The notes below the pieces were generated by a model that saw only the letters and a program-made list of their open reading frames with translations, did not search any database and was not told the origin of the DNA. A stretch of 37,461 nucleotides of DNA, taken from positions 1-37,461 of the forward strand of contig JAUIFJ010000032.1 in NCBI GenBank assembly GCA_030429345.1, given 5' to 3'. The position numbers were made by a program, and so were the translations under genes. This DNA is from a bacterium (GTDB taxonomy: Bacteria > CAIWAD01). Positions 15,349-36,400 of the stretch are shown here, piece after piece; within the stretch, counting starts at the first letter, position 1; every line of letters starts with the position of its first letter.

Positions 15349-16109
15349 AGCTGCTCTGCCTGCATGGATTCATGGGGTCGCCTGAGGACTGGGCGCCCTG
15401 CCTGGAGGCCCTGGCGGAACCGGCCTTCACGCCGCCTCTTCCGGGACACGGCGGCGGACCTGTCGGCGACTCGCTGCCGACGGATGCGGCTCGCTTCCTG
15501 TCCGACTGGCTGGATCCCTGTGATGCAAAACCTTTGCTGGCCGGCTATTCGCTCGGAGGGCGCTTCGCCCTCGAGATGGCAATCGCCGAGCCGCAGGCCT
15601 TTTCAGGCCTCGTCCTGCTGGGCGCTTCTCCCGGCATAGCTGACGAAGAGCGTCGCATAGAACGCCGTGTGCTGGACCGGGAGCGGGCGCTGCGGCTGCG
15701 TGAGGATCCGACGGCCTTCCTGAAGGCCTGGTACCGCATGCCGCTCTTCGGCGACCTGGCAGCTTCCCCCGGGTTCGGGAACCTGCTGCGCCGCCGCCTG
15801 GAACACGACCCGGAAGAACTGGCCCACGCCCTGGAGATTTACAGTCCGGGGCGCGTGCCCTGTCGCACAAGCGCGCTGGCAGGTCTGCCCTTGCCCGTGC
15901 TGTACCTGTACGGAAGCCAGGATCCCGTCTACTCGGCCCTGGCGCCCGGCCTGCGGCGCGCCAGTCCGGACATGCGGGTGCAGGTCCTCGAGGGGGCGGG
16001 ACACGCCCTGCTCGAGCAGCAGCCCCTTGCCCTTGCCGGCCAGCTGAGGAACTTCATCAACAACCTGGAAAGGCGGCAGGCCGCCATCAATGCACAGAGG
16101 AGAGCATGA
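15345..16109 (+). CDS. menH: SHCHC synthase MenH (alpha/beta hydrolase)
   Basis: A 254-aa alpha/beta-hydrolase-fold lyase that removes pyruvate from the MenD product. It opens with [14 protein letters not shown], contains the nucleophile elbow GYSLGG (Ser69), Asp193 in GSQDPVY and His220 in GAGHALLEQ, i.e. the full triad, plus LPGHGG as in MenH proteins. GTG start shared with the menD stop (GTGA). Other small hydrolases look similar; its position between menD and menB makes MenH by far the best reading. Confidence 0.92.
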
Positions 16110-16927
16110 GCGAACACAAGTGGACATCCGCCGGCGAGTACAGCGACATTCTGTACGACAAGCTGCCCGGTGTGGCGAAGATCACCATCAACCGTCCGGA
16201 AGTGCGCAACGCCTTCCGTCCGCAGACCGTGATGCAGATGCGCGAGGCCCTCAACGACGCCCGCGAGGACACGAACATCGGCGTGGTGATCCTTTGCGGC
16301 CAGGGCGAGAAGGCCTTCTGCTCGGGGGGAGACCAGAAGATCCGCGGGGATGCCGGCTACAACGACGGCACCGGCACCCTGCGCCTGAACGTGCTCGACC
16401 TGCAGCGCGAGATCCGCAGCTGCCCCAAGCCGGTCGTCGCCATGGTGGCCGGCTACGCCATCGGCGGCGGCCATGTGCTGCACCTGGTGTGCGACCTGAC
16501 CATTGCCGCGGAGAACTCCCGTTTCGGACAGACCGGCCCCAAGGTCGGCTCCTTCGACGGCGGCTACGGCGCGAGCTACATGGCCCGCTGCATCGGGCAG
16601 AAGCGGGCGCGGGAGATCTGGTACCTCTGCCGGCAGTACGACGCTCAGCAGGCGTTGGCCTGGGGCCTGGTCAACGCGGTCGTGCCCTATGAGAAGCTGG
16701 AGCAGGAGACGCTCCAGTGGTGCAGCGAGATGCTGCGCAACTCGCCGACGGCCCTGCGCTGCCTGAAGGCGGCCTTCAATGCCGACTGCGACGGCCAGGC
16801 CGGTCTGCAGGAACTGGCCGGCTGTGCGACAATGCTCTTCTACATGTCCGAGGAAGGGCAGGAGGGGCGCAACGCCTTCAACGAGAAGCGCGCTCCGGAC
16901 TTCAGCCAGTTCACGCGCCATCCGTGA
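16106..16927 (+). CDS. menB: 1,4-Dihydroxy-2-naphthoyl-CoA synthase MenB
   Basis: A 273-aa crotonase-fold enzyme closing the second ring: O-succinylbenzoyl-CoA to DHNA-CoA. The sequence is highly typical: [48 protein letters not shown], and [20 protein letters not shown], the last being the E. coli-type (bicarbonate-dependent class) segment with Gly where other MenB enzymes have an acidic residue. It ends [11 protein letters not shown], as usual. ATG shared with the menH stop (ATGA) and a good AGAGGAGAG ribosome site. Confidence 0.97.
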
Positions 16928-17799: not shown

Positions 17800-20075
17800 T
17801 CCCCCCGTTGGAACTGGGCTGGCGCCTGCTGCGCCTGCCCCTTCGCCGTCCGCTGCCGGTTCGCGGGACCCTGTGTCACGAACGTATGGTGCTGCGCCTC
17901 CACCTGCGGGACGCCTCGGGCCGCCAGGCCTGGAGCGAGGCCGCGCCCCTGCCCGGCCTGCATTCGGAATCCATGGACCAGCTGCTTGCCCTTCTCCGGG
18001 CGGAAGGAAGCTCCTTGCTGCGGGAGCTGAGAGGCGGATCCGTACCGCAACAGGCGAGGCGTCCGCCGTCCCTGGGCCTGGCGCTGGACCTCCTCGCTGA
18101 AGGCTTTCTGCCACCGGCATCCCCCGCGCATTTCCTCCCTGTGCCCTGTGCGCCCCTGCTGGGACTGGAGCAGCTGCATTCGCCGGAAGCCGCAGGCGTG
18201 TCTCACGCCAAACTGAAGGTGGATCCAAGCAGTCTGCCCGTCCTGCAGGACCTGGGCTCCGTGACGGGGACTCCCGTGCTGCGCCTGGATGGAAACGGCC
18301 GGCTGCGCGTGGAGCACGCCGACGCGCTCCGCGGGTCCCGGGAGAAAGGCCTGCGCCTGCAGTGGATCGAGGATCCCTGTGCCACATGGGAGGAGAGCCT
18401 CGCCTTTTCCAGGGAATCCGGCCTTCCCCTGGCGCTCGATGAGGGCGTGGAGCACATGGACGATGGGGAACTGGCCAAGCGGCTGGCCCGGCCCGAGGTG
18501 GCGGCTCTCGTGCTCAAGCCCTCGCTGTCCGGCGGGTTGGCCATCCTGGGCAAAGGGGTCACACTTGCGCGGCAGGCAGGAAAACTTCCCGTGTTCTCTT
18601 CCTCCTTCGAGAGTCCCTTCGGACTGCGCCAGCTGGCCTGGCTCGCAAGGCGACTTGGCCTTGGCGGCCCGCAGGGACTGGGGACTGCCGGCTGGTTCGA
18701 AGGCACTGCCGTTCGCGGCCAGGCGCAAGAGCTGTGGCCCCTGTGTCCCTCGCTGCCTGCCGGAAGCGGAGAAGGCGAGTTGCTGGACTGGGGGCGTTGC
18801 CGGATCGAGCCGGCGACTTCCCGCGCCCGGAAGCGAACCCTGGCCATCGAGCTGAGCTCGCAGGGGAACACGCTCGCAGATCGCGAGAGGATCGAGCAGG
18901 GCCTGTCGAAAGGGCAGGACCTCTTCCTGCTCAACGGGCGCCTGCCACGGGAACGGCGGATCGAGCTGGCGCGGGACCTCGGCTGCAGCCGCATGGCGAC
19001 ACCAGATGGCTTGGAAGAGCTGGACCCGCCAGCGACTCGTCCCGCACACGGAGCGCGCCTCTGGGTCGCCACCGGCGGCAGCAGCGGACGCAGTCGCCTG
19101 GTAGCGCTGGATGCGGAACAGCTGGAGGACGCGGCGAGGGGTATCAATCGGCGCCTGGGGCTGGACGCGGCCGATCGCTGGCTGCTCAGCCTGCCGCTGT
19201 ATCACGTGGGCGGGCTGGGGATCCTCTGGCGCTGTCGGCTGGCCGGGGCGACCCTGTTGCACATGCGGGATGGCTTGGCGCGGAGTATCACGGAATGTGA
19301 GCCGACGGTGATCAGTCTTGTGCCGGCCCAGTTGCAGCAGTTGCTGGAGGAAGGGCATGCGCATGCCCTGCGCGCCTGTCGCATCGTATTGATGGGCGGC
19401 GCCCCTCTCGACGATGGCCTCTATCGGCGCGCCATGTCTCTGGGGCTGCCCCTGCGGCTGAGCTACGGACTCAGCGAGGCCACTGCCGCGGTCTGCCTGA
19501 GCGATCCGGCGGAAGGGCGCCTGCCCGACGGTCCCGGAGCGGGCCGCGTGTTGCCGCGGCGCGAGCTCTCCCTTGACGGGCAGCAGAGGATCCAGGTGCG
19601 CGGAACCTGTGTGACACGTCACTGCCGGGTCGACGGCAGGGACGTCGATCCCCGCGATGCCGAAGGCTGGCTGGATACGGGGGATCGGGGCGTAGTGGAT
19701 GCCGCCGGGCGGCTGCGCGTTCTGGGGCGCGTGGACCAGCGGATTCAAAGCGGCGGCGAGAACGTGCAGTGCGAACGAGTCGAGGAAGTGCTGAGAGGCT
19801 GTCCCGGCGTGCGACAGGCCCTGGTGGTCGGCGTTCCCGACAAGCGCTGGGGCCAGCGCCCCGTTGCCGTGATCCAGCTGGCGGAGCAGGCACTTGCCCC
19901 GAAGATCCTGGATCACGCGGCTGTCCGGCTGGCAAGCTACGAGCTGCCGAAGATCTGGCTTGACTGGCCGGAAGATCTGCAGGAAGGCCTGAAGGTGCCG
20001 CGCGGCGAACTGCGCGGCTGGGTGCTGCAGCAGCAGGAAGCGGGCTGGCCGGCACGACTATTCCAGGGCGAGTAG
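17796..20075 (+). CDS. menCE: MenC-MenE fusion: O-succinylbenzoate synthase / O-succinylbenzoyl-CoA ligase
   Basis: A 759-aa bifunctional protein. Residues ~1-335 are an enolase-superfamily o-succinylbenzoate synthase with Lys139-x-Lys141, Asp165 (LRLDGNG), Glu192 (IEDP), Asp215 (LALDEG) and Lys241 (LKPSLSGG), spaced like the E. coli MenC catalytic set. Residues ~345-759 are an adenylate-forming acyl-CoA ligase: VATGGSSGRSRL (P-loop, 424-435), LPLYHVGG, SYGLSEAT (556-563), GWLDTGDRG and LGRVDQRIQSGGENV, with a Lys in GLKVPRGELR near the C-terminus. No stop or frameshift separates them. GTG start overlaps the menA stop. In most bacteria these are separate genes; here one chain dehydrates the MenH product and activates it for MenB. 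The 3' end overlaps a convergent thioesterase gene by 18 bp. Confidence 0.94.
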   Translation: MIPPLELGWRLLRLPLRRPLPVRGTLCHERMVLRLHLRDASGRQAWSEAAPLPGLHSESMDQLLALLRAEGSSLLRELRGGSVPQQARRPPSLGLALDLLAEGFLPPASPAHFLPVPCAPLLGLEQLHSPEAAGVSHAKLKVDPSSLPVLQDLGSVTGTPVLRLDGNGRLRVEHADALRGSREKGLRLQWIEDPCATWEESLAFSRESGLPLALDEGVEHMDDGELAKRLARPEVAALVLKPSLSGGLAILGKGVTLARQAGKLPVFSSSFESPFGLRQLAWLARRLGLGGPQGLGTAGWFEGTAVRGQAQELWPLCPSLPAGSGEGELLDWGRCRIEPATSRARKRTLAIELSSQGNTLADRERIEQGLSKGQDLFLLNGRLPRERRIELARDLGCSRMATPDGLEELDPPATRPAHGARLWVATGGSSGRSRLVALDAEQLEDAARGINRRLGLDAADRWLLSLPLYHVGGLGILWRCRLAGATLLHMRDGLARSITECEPTVISLVPAQLQQLLEEGHAHALRACRIVLMGGAPLDDGLYRRAMSLGLPLRLSYGLSEATAAVCLSDPAEGRLPDGPGAGRVLPRRELSLDGQQRIQVRGTCVTRHCRVDGRDVDPRDAEGWLDTGDRGVVDAAGRLRVLGRVDQRIQSGGENVQCERVEEVLRGCPGVRQALVVGVPDKRWGQRPVAVIQLAEQALAPKILDHAAVRLASYELPKIWLDWPEDLQEGLKVPRGELRGWVLQQQEAGWPARLFQGE

Positions 20076-31430: not shown

Positions 31431-32573
31431 TCAGCTCGATGTGCGCGCATCCCGCAACGGAAGCCGGAAGTGAAACCAGGTGCCCTGGCCCACCCGGCTG
31501 TCGAAACTCACCTTGCCGCCCAGGACCTCCTCGCCGAAGAGCTTCATCGAGAAGGTGCCGATGCCGCGACCATCCTGGCACTTGGTGCTGAAGCTCTTCT
31601 GGAAAATCCGTTCGGAGATCGAGGCCGGAATCACCTGGCGATTCCAGACGTGGAAGGAGACTTCCTTGTCCTGGTCCTCGATGCGCAGCCGGACCACGTC
31701 CCCCCTGGCGGAGGCTTCCAGAGCATTGAGCACCATGTTGAACAGAATGCGGGAGAGCACCTCCGGATCGCTGCGGAAGCGGAAGCCGGGGTTTTCCAGT
31801 TCCAGCTCCAGCCGCCTGTCCCGGGATGCCGGGTGACGCGAGAGGACTGCCTGCAGATCCCGCGCGAGCTCCCCGACCAGAAGCTCGGAGACCTGCGGTG
31901 AGTAGGAGTGTTCCTTGCTGCGACTCAGGCATTGCTGGATCGACACCTCGCGCATCAGGCGCCGGGCCACTTTCTGCATGTCGACGGCGAGCTCGTTGTC
32001 GGTTTCGTCGACCAGCATGTCGCCCAGTCCGACCAGGGCCGTGATCATGTTGTTGATATCATGGAAGAAGGTCCGCTCCAGGGCTGCCCGCTGGTACTCC
32101 TTGCCGGCGTCCTCCAGGAAGACCAGGGCGAAGAGCCTGCCGCCAATGCGGATCGGGCGCGCGCGCACCTTGAGGGTCCTGTCCACGCGCCGCCCTTCCG
32201 CCTGGACACTCAGGGCGCAGGTCTTTTCCACCAGTTCATCGCACTGCATGGCTTCCAGAACGGCAAGAACGGCGCCGCAGTTGGCGCAGGCGCATCCGGT
32301 GCCGCAGCCCGAAGGCGCGTCGGCGGCGTAGATGCAGTGCATGGCTTCTCCGGGACGCATGCCGAGCACCTCCGCCGCACTCCGGAGCCCCAGCATGTCG
32401 GCCAGCGAATCGTTGAGCGCGACGATCTGCCGGTTCTCGTTGACGACCGCCAGCAGGCCATGGACCGTGTTCAGCACGCCGATCACGAAGGGGTTTCCGC
32501 TGATCAGCTGGATTTCGCGCTTGAGTTCTTCCATGCTGGTGCGTTCAGGAGAGGCGAAGTGCGTTTGAGTCAT
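31431..32573 (-). CDS. PAS-domain sensor histidine kinase with cysteine cluster
   Basis: A 380-aa soluble histidine kinase. A PAS domain (about 30-155; VLNTVHGLLAVVNENRQIVALNDSLADMLG) contains Cys80, Cys90, Cys94, Cys96 and Cys99 (HCIYAADAPSGCGTGCACANCG) and Cys111, a clustered arrangement known in some PAS kinases that could bind a metal or sense redox state. The phospho-acceptor is His171 in FFHDINNMITALVGLG; the ATPase domain has the N-box NMVLNALEAS (Asn283), FSTKCQDGRGIGTFSMKLF and GQGTWFHFRLPL. No membrane segment. The ATG at 32573 has GGAG 6 nt upstream. No response regulator is nearby, so it is an orphan. It is divergent from the radical SAM pair and upstream of pckA; partner and signal unknown. 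Confidence 0.92.
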   Translation of the reverse strand: MTQTHFASPERTSMEELKREIQLISGNPFVIGVLNTVHGLLAVVNENRQIVALNDSLADMLGLRSAAEVLGMRPGEAMHCIYAADAPSGCGTGCACANCGAVLAVLEAMQCDELVEKTCALSVQAEGRRVDRTLKVRARPIRIGGRLFALVFLEDAGKEYQRAALERTFFHDINNMITALVGLGDMLVDETDNELAVDMQKVARRLMREVSIQQCLSRSKEHSYSPQVSELLVGELARDLQAVLSRHPASRDRRLELELENPGFRFRSDPEVLSRILFNMVLNALEASARGDVVRLRIEDQDKEVSFHVWNRQVIPASISERIFQKSFSTKCQDGRGIGTFSMKLFGEEVLGGKVSFDSRVGQGTWFHFRLPLRDARTSS

Positions 32574-32788: not shown

Positions 32789-34573
32789 ATGACCCTGCAG
32801 GTCGATACCCATTTCATGTCCGCGCTCTCGTCCATCAAGGTGGATCTGCTTCTGCTGCATGCTCCGGCGGTCTTCGATTTCCGCGAGCGGGGAGACCTCT
32901 GGTTTCCCTTCCTCTCGACGGCGGGGGATGTGCCGATCACTCCGCTCTACGAGTACTTTCCCATGGGCTTCCGCAGCCTGCGATCGAGCCTGCGCGAGGC
33001 GGGGCACGAGGTGCGGATTCTCAACCTGGCGACCCTGTTGCTGCGGTATCCCTTCCTGGACCTGGACCCACTGCTCGATCGGCTGGAGACCCCGCTGATC
33101 GGCATGGACCTGCACTGGATGGTCCATGTCCAGGGAGTGCTCGAACTGGCGCGGCGGATTCGGCGCCGCAAGCCGGAGTGCCGCATCCTTCTGGGAGGCA
33201 TTTCCGCCACCTGGTACGCCGAGGAACTCGTGAGACGCCCGGAAATCGATTTCGTCCTGCGCGGCTACGACACGCACGAGCCCCTGCGCCTGCTGATGGA
33301 GGTCCTGCAGGCGGGCCGGAGGCCGGACGAGGTGCCCAACCTCTTGTGGAAGACCGGCGAAGGACAGGTGCTGGACAACGGCATGTCACACAAGCCCGCG
33401 GCCTGGGGCCGGGCGATGGACTGGAGCGAGATGCCCGCCGCTCCGCCGGGAGACGGCCTGCCCTTCCGGGAGGTCCTCTCGATCCAGAACACGGGCTGCG
33501 CCTACGATTGCCACTGGTGCGGGGGAAGCCGCAGCGCCTTCCGCCGCATCCACGGGGAGGGCGGCTCCGTGGTATACAAATCCGCCGCCGAGACCCGCAG
33601 GGAGCTGGAAAGCCTGAAGCGCATGCGCGGCGGGGAACATGCGCTGTGCTACGCGATCAGCGCCTACAACGAGAGCCCCGAGGGCCTGCGGGAACAGGCG
33701 CGCGCCCTGGGCAGCGCCGGACCCGCGGCGGTCAATTTCGAGCAGTTCCACCTGACTCCGGAACCGACCCTCAAGGCGATGGCCGCCGCCAACCCGCGCA
33801 CCTGTATCACCCTGAGTCCCGAGTCGCACGACCGGGAGGTCGCCCGCCGCGCCGGTCGCGGCGTCTACAGCATGGAGGAGATGGAAGCCTGGATCACGCG
33901 GGCCCTCGACCTGGGCATTCACCAGGTGGACATCTGGTTCTTCATCGGCATGCCGGGGCAGGACGAGGCCTCCGTCGCCGGCACCCTGGCCTATTGCGGA
34001 CAACTGCTGCAGCGCTTCGAGGGGCGGCGGGTCCTGCCCTACATCTGCCCGATGCAGCCCTTCCTGGATCCGGCGAGCACCTTCTTCATGGCGCCGTCGG
34101 CACACGGCTACCGACTCTTCGCCCGCACGGCCGAGGAGCACCGCCGCCTGATGCTCCGCGCCTCCCTGCCCAACCGGATGAACTACGAGACGCACTGGCT
34201 GAGCCGCCTGGACATCGTCCGGCTGGGGCTGGAATGCGTTTCCGGCCTGGCGCAGATGAAACGGGCGGCAGGCCTTTTCCCCGGAAGCCTGCTGCGCAGG
34301 CTGCAGGGCCGGATTGCGGATACCCTGGAATTCCTGCCGGTGGTACACGAGGCGGACAGCCTGCCGGATCCCGCCGAACGCAAGGCCGCCCTGGCCTCGC
34401 TGGAAAGGGGGATCCTTCAGCGCAACCGCGAGATCTTCTTCGGCGGCGTGGCCAACCAGGCCTTTCCGCTGGCGAGAGAGGTGGGCGGGCGCTGGTTCGA
34501 CGAGCTGCTCTGGCCCGTATCCGAACTGGAGGCCATGCGTCTGCAAGAAGAAGATTCTGCCAATAGTTTCTGA
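32789..34573 (+). CDS. B12-binding domain / radical SAM protein, copy 1
   Basis: A ~594-aa enzyme with an N-terminal cobalamin-binding-like domain and a radical SAM core. After VDLLLLHAPAVFDFRERGD come PITPLYEYFPMGF, AGHEVRILNLATLLL and LLGGISATWYA. The [4Fe-4S]/SAM motif is CAYDCHWC (CX3CX2C), followed by GGSRSAF. Later blocks HLTPEPTL, TLSPESHD, RAGRGVY and VDIWFFIGMPGQDEAS are shared with copy 2, as is the C-terminal block with FFGGVANQAFPLAREVGG. The layout recalls the Ta0216-type B12/radical SAM family (TIGR04190), from memory. The start at 32789 has GGAG 11 nt upstream; 32816 would match copy 2's length better. Reaction unknown. Tandem with copy 2 (75-bp gap). Confidence 0.9.
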   Translation: MTLQVDTHFMSALSSIKVDLLLLHAPAVFDFRERGDLWFPFLSTAGDVPITPLYEYFPMGFRSLRSSLREAGHEVRILNLATLLLRYPFLDLDPLLDRLETPLIGMDLHWMVHVQGVLELARRIRRRKPECRILLGGISATWYAEELVRRPEIDFVLRGYDTHEPLRLLMEVLQAGRRPDEVPNLLWKTGEGQVLDNGMSHKPAAWGRAMDWSEMPAAPPGDGLPFREVLSIQNTGCAYDCHWCGGSRSAFRRIHGEGGSVVYKSAAETRRELESLKRMRGGEHALCYAISAYNESPEGLREQARALGSAGPAAVNFEQFHLTPEPTLKAMAAANPRTCITLSPESHDREVARRAGRGVYSMEEMEAWITRALDLGIHQVDIWFFIGMPGQDEASVAGTLAYCGQLLQRFEGRRVLPYICPMQPFLDPASTFFMAPSAHGYRLFARTAEEHRRLMLRASLPNRMNYETHWLSRLDIVRLGLECVSGLAQMKRAAGLFPGSLLRRLQGRIADTLEFLPVVHEADSLPDPAERKAALASLERGILQRNREIFFGGVANQAFPLAREVGGRWFDELLWPVSELEAMRLQEEDSANSF

Positions 34574-34648
34574 TAGCGTTGTTCAGGGCTTGCAGGGTTT
34601 CCGGGCCTTTCCTTCCTAGATGGGAACACTCAGCCTTGGAGCCTCCCC

Positions 34649-36400
34649 ATGTCCACAACCCCCCTGAGCCGCGTCCGCGCGGATCTGCTGCTGCTGCACG
34701 CCCCCGCCGTTTTCGATTTCCGCGAACGGCGCGACATCTACTTCCCCTACCTGAGCACATCGGGCGATGTGCCGATTACTCCGCTCTATGAGTACTTCCC
34801 CGTCGGCTTCAAGACCCTGCGCGGCCATCTCGGCGAGGCGGGGCACGAAGTGCGCATCCTGAACCTGGCGACCCTTCTGCTGCGCTACCCGGAAGTGGAA
34901 CTCGGGCAGCTGCTGTCGGCTCTCGACACGGAACTGATCGGCATCGACCTCCATTGGATGGTCCATGTGCAGGGCGCTCTGGCGGTGGCAGAGGAGATCA
35001 AGCGCCTGCGCCCGGAGATCCAGGTGATCTTCGGCGGCATCTCCTCGACCTACTATGCCGATGAACTGATCCGCTACCCTTTCGTCGACATGGTGATGCG
35101 CGGCTACGAGACCCACGAACCCATGCGTCTTCTGCTCGAAAGCCGCAAGCTGGGGCAGGAGCCGCGAAACGTGCCGAACCTGCTCTGGAAGGACACGCGC
35201 GGCGAGGTGTGTGACAACGGATTCGTCTACACGCCGGACAGCTACTCCTGCGGCATCGACTGGTCGCAGATGCCGGAGTCGCCCGACCGCAGGGGCCTGC
35301 CGGTCAAGGAGCTGCTCTCGACCCAGAACGCGGGCTGCTCCTACAACTGCCCCTGGTGCGGTGGCAGCCGGGAGGCCTTTCGCCGGATCATGGGGCGGCG
35401 CAAGGCCATGGCGCGCAAGCCCCTGGAGGAGGTCGAGCGCGAGTTCGCCAGCATGCGCGAGCTGAATGACCTGAACCGCCACCACTTCTATACGGTCGGC
35501 ACCTACAACGAGCCGCCCTCCAGGTTGAAGCATTTCATCGCGCAGGTGGCGCGGACTCCGCCGGCCTCGATCAGCTACGAGCAGTATCACCTGACCCCGG
35601 AACCGGTGCTGCGCCAGATGGCTGCCGCCTGTCCGCGGACCAGCATCACGCTCTCGCCCGAATCCCATGATCCCGAGATCGCCCGCCGAGCCGGCCGCGG
35701 CGTCTACAGCAACCGCGAAATGGAAAAGTGGATCGGCAAGGCCCTCGACCTGGGGATCCACCAGGTGGACATCTGGTACTTCATCGGCATGCCGGGACAG
35801 GACGAGGCCTCTGTGGAGGGTACCCTGCGGTATTGCGAGCACCTGCTCAAGAAGTTCCAGGGGCAGAATGTCTACCCCTTCCTCTGCCCGATGATCCCCT
35901 TTCTGGATCCCGCCTCGACGCTCTTCGAGCAGCCGGAGAAACACGGTTATACGGTGTATCACCGAAGCGTCGAGGAGCACCGCAGGGGCATGGAGTCGGC
36001 GTCGATCGTCAACCGCATCAACTACGGCACCCGCTGGCTGGACCGCGAGGACCTGGTGCGCGTCGGATTCGGCGCCGTGAGGCGGCTGACGGAAATGAAG
36101 GTCGCGGCGGGACAGTATTCGGCGAGCATGGGCCGCCGTGTCACGGGCCGCATCGACGACGCACTGCGATTCCAGCCGCTGGTGCACGAGGCGGACTGCC
36201 TGAAGAATCCGCGCGAACGTGCGCGCGCACTCGATGCCCTGGGAGACGAGATCCTCCTGAGAAACCGCGAGATCTTCTTCGGCGGCGTGGCTAACCAGGC
36301 CTTTCCGCTGGCGAGAGAGGTGGGCGGGCGCTGGTTCGACGAGCTGCTCTGGCCGCTGGAGGAGCTGGACGCCCTGCGCAAGGCAAGCCGCGTGGGCTAG
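34649..36400 (+). CDS. B12-binding domain / radical SAM protein, copy 2
   Basis: A 583-aa paralog of the preceding gene, alignable end to end. It starts MSTTPLSRVRADLLLLHAPA with GGAG 7 nt upstream. The cobalamin-binding-like part has PITPLYEYFPVGF, AGHEVRILNLATLLL and IFGGISSTYYADEL; the cluster motif is CSYNCPWC (Cys230, Cys234, Cys237) followed by GGSREAF. Shared downstream blocks include HLTPEPVL, TLSPESHDPEIARRAGRGVYS and VDIWYFIGMPGQDEAS. The last 31 residues before the tail match copy 1, and at DNA level 36263-36354 differs from 34424-34515 by one base although the rest is well diverged. No partner substrate protein or precursor peptide is visible. Function unknown. Confidence 0.91.
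   Translation: MSTTPLSRVRADLLLLHAPAVFDFRERRDIYFPYLSTSGDVPITPLYEYFPVGFKTLRGHLGEAGHEVRILNLATLLLRYPEVELGQLLSALDTELIGIDLHWMVHVQGALAVAEEIKRLRPEIQVIFGGISSTYYADELIRYPFVDMVMRGYETHEPMRLLLESRKLGQEPRNVPNLLWKDTRGEVCDNGFVYTPDSYSCGIDWSQMPESPDRRGLPVKELLSTQNAGCSYNCPWCGGSREAFRRIMGRRKAMARKPLEEVEREFASMRELNDLNRHHFYTVGTYNEPPSRLKHFIAQVARTPPASISYEQYHLTPEPVLRQMAAACPRTSITLSPESHDPEIARRAGRGVYSNREMEKWIGKALDLGIHQVDIWYFIGMPGQDEASVEGTLRYCEHLLKKFQGQNVYPFLCPMIPFLDPASTLFEQPEKHGYTVYHRSVEEHRRGMESASIVNRINYGTRWLDREDLVRVGFGAVRRLTEMKVAAGQYSASMGRRVTGRIDDALRFQPLVHEADCLKNPRERARALDALGDEILLRNREIFFGGVANQAFPLAREVGGRWFDELLWPLEELDALRKASRVG

What the first reader, a model, noticed from the sequence alone, without database searches (positions are those of the whole stretch)
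32789..36400. Tandem B12/radical SAM paralogs of unknown reaction
Two full-length copies with CX3CX2C motifs, cobalamin-binding-like N-termini and a shared, long C-terminal domain lie side by side, opposite a sensor kinase. Their marked divergence in the cluster region (CAYDCHWC versus CSYNCPWC) suggests different substrates or a heteromer. No precursor peptide or known pathway gene is nearby.
Basis: partly seen in the sequence, partly recalled or inferred. Interest (0 to 1): 0.6.

Follow-up and report, generated by a model that had tools for sequence, protein, structure and literature searches.

The report
Duplicated B12 enzyme for pyrrole tailoring
Two neighbouring genes, one a fast-changing copy of the other, encode vitamin-B12 radical enzymes of a family that nearly always shares its genome with the genes that turn proline into a carrier-bound pyrrole, so they most likely add carbon groups to that pyrrole before it is attached to something outside the cell.

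Summary
In detail: two adjacent same-strand genes (60% identical; Pfam B12-binding plus Radical_SAM; CX3CX2C) lie opposite a sensor kinase. The cluster-motif differences are ordinary family variation; the real divergence is elsewhere (residues 261-310 of copy 1).

The pair is a duplication seen only in this genome. Seventeen close relatives in scattered phyla each gave one match, nearer to copy 2; copy 1 evolved about four times faster.

Function follows from where relatives sit. In four genomes the gene adjoins a prolyl-carrier dehydrogenase gene (three with the proline ligase too); in a fifth, a PltA-like halogenase. A PigA-like dehydrogenase at >=396 bits occurs in 16 of 19 genomes with this rSAM versus 5 of 384 without. 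This genome carries, on another contig, an operon MBOAT-SGNH / ACP / proline adenylation (PltF-like code) / prolyl-ACP dehydrogenase: a Dlt-like export layout loaded with a pyrrole.

Best reading: B12-dependent C-methylation of pyrrole-2-carboxyl-ACP, working like CloN6, the second copy altered in specificity. Best fold match is TsrM, a methylase of an aromatic N-heterocycle. Reaction, acceptor and copy roles are inferred. The family is near TIGR04190 but fails its cut-off. New variant of a known kind.

The parts
32789..34573 (+). Copy 1 (P0001), B12-binding/radical SAM protein, 594 aa; likely true start ATG 32816. Fast-evolving copy.
34649..36400 (+). Copy 2 (P0002), B12-binding/radical SAM protein, 583 aa. 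Slow copy, closest to the single-copy relatives; AF2 model pLDDT 87.6, best PDB fold match TsrM.
32939..33277 (+). B12-binding domain of copy 1 (aa 51-163)
34778..35116 (+). B12-binding domain of copy 2 (aa 44-156)
33497..33520 (+). CX3CX2C motif of copy 1, CAYDCHWC
35336..35359 (+). CX3CX2C motif of copy 2, CSYNCPWC
33569..33718 (+). Copy 1 aa 261-310, fast-diverging segment; aligned to alpha1-beta2-alpha2 of the radical SAM domain in the copy 2 model; loses the close clade's invariant His279 (Leu286 here)
34424..34515 (+). 3' tract of copy 1, 91 of 92 nt identical to copy 2 (36263-36354); probable gene conversion
36263..36354 (+). 3' tract of copy 2, partner of 34424-34515
31431..32534 (-). 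Divergent PAS/HATPase_c sensor kinase; neighbour, not conserved beside relatives, so probably not part of the system

Best explanation
The pair encodes cobalamin-dependent radical SAM enzymes of a narrow, horizontally spread clade that modifies a carrier-bound pyrrole. Proposed pathway: a PltF-like ligase loads L-proline on a small ACP; a PigA/AnaB-like flavoprotein oxidises it to pyrrole-2-carboxyl-ACP; P0002 (and P0001) transfers a methyl group from SAM via methylcobalamin to a ring carbon; in this genome a fused MBOAT-SGNH membrane protein then moves the pyrrolyl group across the membrane onto an unknown acceptor, as DltB/DltD do with D-alanine or PatA/PatB with acetate. P0002 keeps the ancestral activity; P0001 is a later copy with an altered active-site segment, probably acting on another ring position or a later intermediate. 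Shown by computation: domains, fold, duplication history, physical linkage and co-occurrence with proline-to-pyrrole genes, the operon in the same genome. Inferred: methylation, pyrrole as the direct substrate, acceptor, division of labour.
For: Linkage: the relative sits beside prolyl-PCP dehydrogenase in L006, L008, L012 and L026/L082; L006, L008 and L082 also have proline ligase and ACP (L006/L008 also Rieske oxygenase and MBOAT-SGNH), in different gene orders. In L005 it lies 103 nt behind a tryptophan/PltA-type FAD halogenase, and relatives of that halogenase sit beside the dehydrogenase in L073, L074 and L077. Co-occurrence: PigA-like dehydrogenase >=396 bits in 16 of 19 rSAM genomes versus 5 of 384 others, Fisher p about 1e-21. 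Own genome, contig C66: MBOAT-SGNH (836 aa), ACP (86), ligase (522), dehydrogenase (386) in one operon; ligase pocket code DLLYNALVC versus DLLYLALVC of PltF; dehydrogenase keeps the DWER glutamate motif. MBOAT assignment by profile comparison, probability 94.6%. Fold: TsrM E 1.2e-17, then MgmA, CysS, TokK, the B12 methylases. Precedent: cloN6 deletion shows a B12-type radical SAM protein methylating pyrrole-2-carboxyl in clorobiocin (PMC10849742, PMC8992657). Copies: sisters at 99/99 support, branches 0.84 and 0.21; dN/dS about 0.43, so both look functional.
Against: In this genome the rSAM genes and the pyrrole operon are on different contigs, so the link here is by inference. The same operon occurs without the rSAM in G119 and G160, so the rSAM is optional. 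Three of 19 rSAM genomes (G061, G072, G073) show no PigA-like dehydrogenase at that score. rSAM genomes are large and rich in biosynthetic clusters, which inflates co-occurrence, and the background sample is not matched for genome size. Three Myxococcota ligases have another pocket code (DLFNxSVSS). Fold similarity to methylases does not prove methylation: OxsB and AprD4 also match.
Confidence: 0.6

Rival explanations
1. Same pathway, other chemistry: the enzymes act on the carrier-bound pyrrole or its later product but do a rearrangement, ring coupling, desaturation or multi-step alkylation instead of a single methylation.
For: OxsB (ring contraction) and AprD4 (dehydration) are also among the fold matches; CysS and TokK do repeated methylations, CysS on a carrier-bound aromatic acid (PMC8992657). 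Rieske oxygenase or halogenase accompany the enzyme in some genomes, so the pyrrole is heavily tailored.
Against: The best matches are methylases, TsrM first; the only known precedent on this substrate, CloN6, is a methylation.
Confidence: 0.2
2. The enzymes serve an unrelated task (lipid, cofactor or protein modification) and the pyrrole link is a by-product of large genomes that collect biosynthetic clusters.
For: In this window and in about half of the relatives the neighbours are unrelated. Distant TIGR04190-like members (31-38% identical) occur without PigA-like or PltF-like genes.
Against: Direct adjacency to the dehydrogenase in four genomes of different phyla in rearranged orders, plus a halogenase neighbour in a fifth, is hard to get by chance; same-family genomes G001-G003 lack both rSAM and PigA-like dehydrogenase.
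Confidence: 0.15
3. The two copies form an obligate heteromer in which P0001 is a non-catalytic or regulatory partner of P0002.
For: Adjacent genes, asymmetric rates, loss of a clade-invariant His at beta2 in P0001.
Against: All 17 relatives yielded a single match, so the ancestral enzyme needs no partner; P0001 keeps all three cluster cysteines and the columns that are invariant also in the archaeal relatives, and is under purifying selection.
Confidence: 0.12

Closest known systems
CloN6/CouN6, pyrrole C-methylation in clorobiocin and coumermycin
   Same: Radical SAM protein of the B12 type serving a proline ligase + carrier protein + prolyl dehydrogenase pathway (PMC10849742, PMC8992657).
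   Different: CloN6 sequence could not be compared here; no aminocoumarin genes; in this genome an MBOAT-SGNH protein stands where a soluble acyltransferase acts in clorobiocin (the latter from own knowledge).
TIGR04190 (B12_SAM_Ta0216)
   Same: Best NCBIfam match along almost the whole length, E 5e-92 and 3.5e-105.
   Different: 309 and 353 bits, below the cut-off of 500; bacterial, with an extended C-terminus; archaeal relatives are only 33% identical.
TsrM, tryptophan C2 methylase
   Same: Best solved fold for the P0002 model (E 1.2e-17, TM about 0.56), two-domain plan, aromatic N-heterocycle as substrate.
   Different: 16% identity; the TsrM-specific Arg69 and Glu273 could not be checked in the model.
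Dlt operon (D-alanylation) and PatA/PatB-type MBOAT-SGNH acylation of cell-envelope polymers
   Same: The C66 operon has an amino-acid adenylating ligase, a small carrier, MBOAT and SGNH modules (PMC12148441 for MBOAT-SGNH systems).
   Different: The ligase is proline-type, a prolyl dehydrogenase is built in, MBOAT and SGNH are fused, acceptor unknown.

Membership tests
Cobalamin-dependent radical SAM enzymes | B12-binding Rossmann domain followed by radical SAM domain | tested here: met
   Pfam PF02310 and PF04055 above gathering scores in both copies; fold matches TsrM, CysS, TokK, OxsB
Cobalamin-dependent radical SAM enzymes | CX3CX2C cluster motif | tested here: met
   both copies and all aligned relatives
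Cobalamin-dependent radical SAM enzymes | Binds cobalamin and a 4Fe-4S cluster, uses SAM | not testable with these tools
   needs purified protein
TIGR04190 (Ta0216 family) | Score above the curated cut-off of 500 bits | tested here: not met
   309.1 and 352.7 bits
CloN6-type pyrrole methylase | Sequence relationship to CloN6 | not tested
   CloN6 sequence not available in the held collections
CloN6-type pyrrole methylase | Genes for proline ligase, carrier and prolyl dehydrogenase in the same genome | tested here: met
   contig C66 operon
CloN6-type pyrrole methylase | Methylates a pyrrole carbon | not testable with these tools
   needs assay or product structure
TsrM-type non-radical methylase | Arg under the cobalt and Glu ligand on the unique iron | not tested
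Dlt-like envelope acylation system (C66 operon) | Amino-acid ligase, carrier, MBOAT and SGNH modules together | tested here: met
   SGNH by Pfam GDSL below the curated cut-off in L006/L008/L085 and no Pfam hit in the own-genome copy, but SGNH-like motifs in the alignment
Dlt-like envelope acylation system (C66 operon) | D-alanine as cargo | tested here: not met
   pocket code DLLYNALVC like PltF proline ligase
Prolyl-carrier dehydrogenase (PigA/RedW) | Score above NF053553 cut-off of 500 bits | tested here: not met
   own-genome protein 418 bits; the L006 relative's best PDB match is a prolyl-ACP dehydrogenase, 4irn, and the catalytic-Glu motif WER is kept, so it works like one without meeting the curated PigA cut-off

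The most novel reading that the evidence does not exclude
A surface- or lipid-acylation system, Dlt-like in layout, makes an aromatic pyrrole-2-carboxyl group on its own carrier, has it C-methylated by a B12 radical SAM enzyme (here duplicated for two positions), and exports it with a fused MBOAT-SGNH transferase: an undescribed pyrroloylation of an extracytoplasmic molecule in several phyla.
Probability: 0.35. Interest if true: 0.8.

Novelty: new variant of a known kind. Interest (0 to 1): 0.55.

Why it matters
It gives a testable reaction to an unassigned branch of B12 radical SAM enzymes. How B12 radical SAM enzymes methylate pyrrole carbons is open: CloN6 has only genetic evidence (PMC8992657). 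This clade offers close relatives in cultured-lineage genomes such as Methylomonas, a natural duplicate pair for comparing specificity, and a compact operon that suggests pyrrole groups are attached outside the cell, a decoration for which the held literature returned no description.

Tried and rejected
Riboswitch search around the genes: nothing. Promoter and terminator scan: no more than chance. Plasmid collection: no homologue. PDB by sequence: no usable hit for the rSAM; solved by fold search instead. AF2 of the MBOAT-SGNH protein with two sequences: pLDDT 39.8, discarded; replaced by profile comparison with 13 Pfam-MBOAT ORFs, several of them truncated fragments, P 94.6%. L016's second radical SAM gene (L016:6102-7967) is a different, unrelated-type protein, not a second copy: the family search gave one hit there. 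Neighbours of distant TIGR04190-like members shared no context. Gene calls in loci came from a simple script of my own and may misplace starts.
Full report
Observation. Two full ORFs stand side by side on the plus strand, 32789-34573 (P0001, 594 aa; ATG 32816 is the likelier start) and 34649-36400 (P0002, 583 aa), 75 nt apart. They share 347 of 574 aligned residues, 60%, without gaps, and both carry Pfam B12-binding and Radical_SAM domains above curated scores and one CX3CX2C motif. A PAS/HATPase_c kinase is divergent at 31431-32534.

Family. The nearest NCBIfam model is TIGR04190 (Ta0216), but at 309 and 353 bits against a cut-off of 500, so they are not filed there. A scan of about 85,000 species genomes gave 17 bacterial loci 56-65% identical to P0002, and five archaeal ones at about 33%. 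The bacterial loci lie in Hydrogenedentota, Myxococcota, Pseudomonadota, Planctomycetota, Chloroflexota and Acidobacteria. All are closer to P0002 than to P0001 (about 50-54%), with one match per fetched locus. A further one at 43% is in G032. Three genomes of the same family as the window lack the gene. The patchy spread points to horizontal transfer.

The duplication. P0001 and P0002 are sisters (support 99/99) with branch lengths 0.84 and 0.21. In relative-rate counts P0001 has 71-98 private changes against 29-45 for P0002, p below 0.02 with each of 14 outgroups. dN/dS between them is about 0.43 (0.36/0.83), so P0001 is not a pseudogene. The cluster cysteines are kept. Divergence peaks at P0001 residues 261-310, 20-24% identical; of 20 well-conserved columns in that block 13 are changed in P0001 and 5 in P0002. 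This corresponds to alpha1-beta2-alpha2 of the radical SAM domain in the model, and includes His279, invariant in the 15 other close members aligned and Leu286 in P0001. The last part of the two genes is 91 of 92 nt identical (34424-34515 and 36263-36354), far above the synonymous similarity elsewhere; gene conversion is likely, an assembly effect is possible.

Structure. AlphaFold2 on P0002 with 20 relatives gave pLDDT 87.6, pTM 0.89. Foldseek against the PDB: TsrM first (E 1.2e-17), then MgmA, CysS, AprD4, TokK, OxsB. TsrM methylates C2 of the indole of tryptophan; CysS acts on a carrier-bound aromatic acid (PMC8992657).

Pathway. Neighbouring genes were called with a simple script and compared between loci. 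In L006 (Betaproteobacteria) the gene lies in a run of Rieske oxygenase alpha and beta, rSAM, an 845-aa MBOAT-SGNH protein, ACP, amino-acid ligase and acyl-CoA-dehydrogenase-like protein; L008 (Methylomonas) holds the same set in another order. The dehydrogenase's best PDB match is a prolyl-ACP dehydrogenase (4irn, E 2e-110) and its best NCBIfam models are PigA and RedW; the ligase matches L-proline--carrier ligase 6o6e. In L012 (Chloroflexota) the dehydrogenase is about 2 kb away and divergent; in G032 it follows the rSAM directly with ligase and ACP behind. In L010 the rSAM and the dehydrogenase are on one contig, about 13 kb apart. In L005 (Polyangia) a PltA-type FAD halogenase lies 103 nt upstream, and related halogenases sit beside the dehydrogenase in L073, L074 and L077.

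Co-occurrence. A PigA-like dehydrogenase of at least 396 bits is present in 16 of 19 genomes with the close rSAM clade and in 5 of 384 sampled genomes without it (Fisher p about 1e-21). The adjacency in different phyla is the stronger argument.

This genome. Contig C66 (locus L070) carries an operon on one strand: MBOAT-SGNH protein 836 aa, ACP 86 aa, ligase 522 aa, dehydrogenase 386 aa. The ligase pocket reads DLLYNALVC, against DLLYLALVC in PltF, and the dehydrogenase keeps the WER glutamate motif. The N-terminal half of the MBOAT-SGNH protein matches a profile of MBOAT ORFs at 94.6% probability, E 7e-8, with the FWRR...P and His motifs aligned; the C-terminal half has GDSL/SGNH features, by weak Pfam hits in relatives and by conserved motifs. 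In 386 genomes the MBOAT-SGNH protein was found in three, G000, G119 and G160, and all three have the ligase and dehydrogenase. G119 and G160 lack the rSAM, so the rSAM is an optional tailoring step.

Mechanism, best supported. L-proline is loaded on the ACP, oxidised to pyrrole-2-carboxyl-ACP, C-methylated by the B12 radical SAM enzyme(s), then passed by the MBOAT-SGNH protein to an acceptor outside the membrane. The first two steps rest on well-known families; the order follows thiotemplated pyrrole biosynthesis (PMC10849742). The methylation is inferred from fold and from CloN6, whose role rests on gene deletion only (PMC8992657). Transfer to an extracytoplasmic acceptor is inferred from MBOAT-SGNH systems (PMC12148441, abstract only) and the Dlt layout. 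That P0001 has a shifted specificity is inferred from its asymmetric change.

What is not settled. CloN6 itself could not be compared. Cofactors, the reaction, the acceptor and whether the copies form a dimer are untested. In this genome the pair and the operon are not physically linked. Three of 19 rSAM genomes lack a PigA-like gene at the threshold; G061 has the halogenase neighbour and G073 has the MBOAT-SGNH protein, G072 has neither. Three Myxococcota ligases have a different pocket code, so the substrate may vary.

Verdict. A real tandem duplicate of a sparsely distributed B12 radical SAM clade now tied to carrier-bound pyrrole chemistry. New variant of a known kind; interest 0.55.

Noticed in passing
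window 34424-34515 and 36263-36354: 91 of 92 nt identical between the two paralogs, synonymous sites included, while the rest has diverged: recent gene conversion or an assembly effect.
   Followed up: partly
L070:8436-13922 (own genome, contig C66): Dlt-like operon of MBOAT-SGNH fusion, ACP, proline ligase and prolyl-ACP dehydrogenase; also in G060, G074, G119 and G160, in the last two without the radical SAM gene. Worth a study of its own.
   Followed up: partly
L119 (G119:C23:33338-34921): The MBOAT part of the G119 copy is read with one internal TGA stop; frame change, pseudogene or sequence error.
   Followed up: no
L005:8561-9871: Tryptophan/PltA-type FAD halogenase directly upstream of the single-copy rSAM gene in a Polyangia genome.
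   Followed up: partly
L075, L076, L078: Myxococcota ligases in the dehydrogenase/ACP clusters carry pocket code DLFNxSVSS instead of the proline code, so another amino acid may be loaded.
   Followed up: no
G106 and G246 (loci L087, L089, L095-L098): Distant TIGR04190-like proteins (31-36% identical) occur in three copies per genome, without pyrrole genes; a separate unexplained expansion.
   Followed up: partly
window 16106-16927 and 18198-20075: Enoyl-CoA-hydratase-family protein and an AMP-binding ligase in a run of plus-strand genes that looks like a menaquinone cluster.
   Followed up: no
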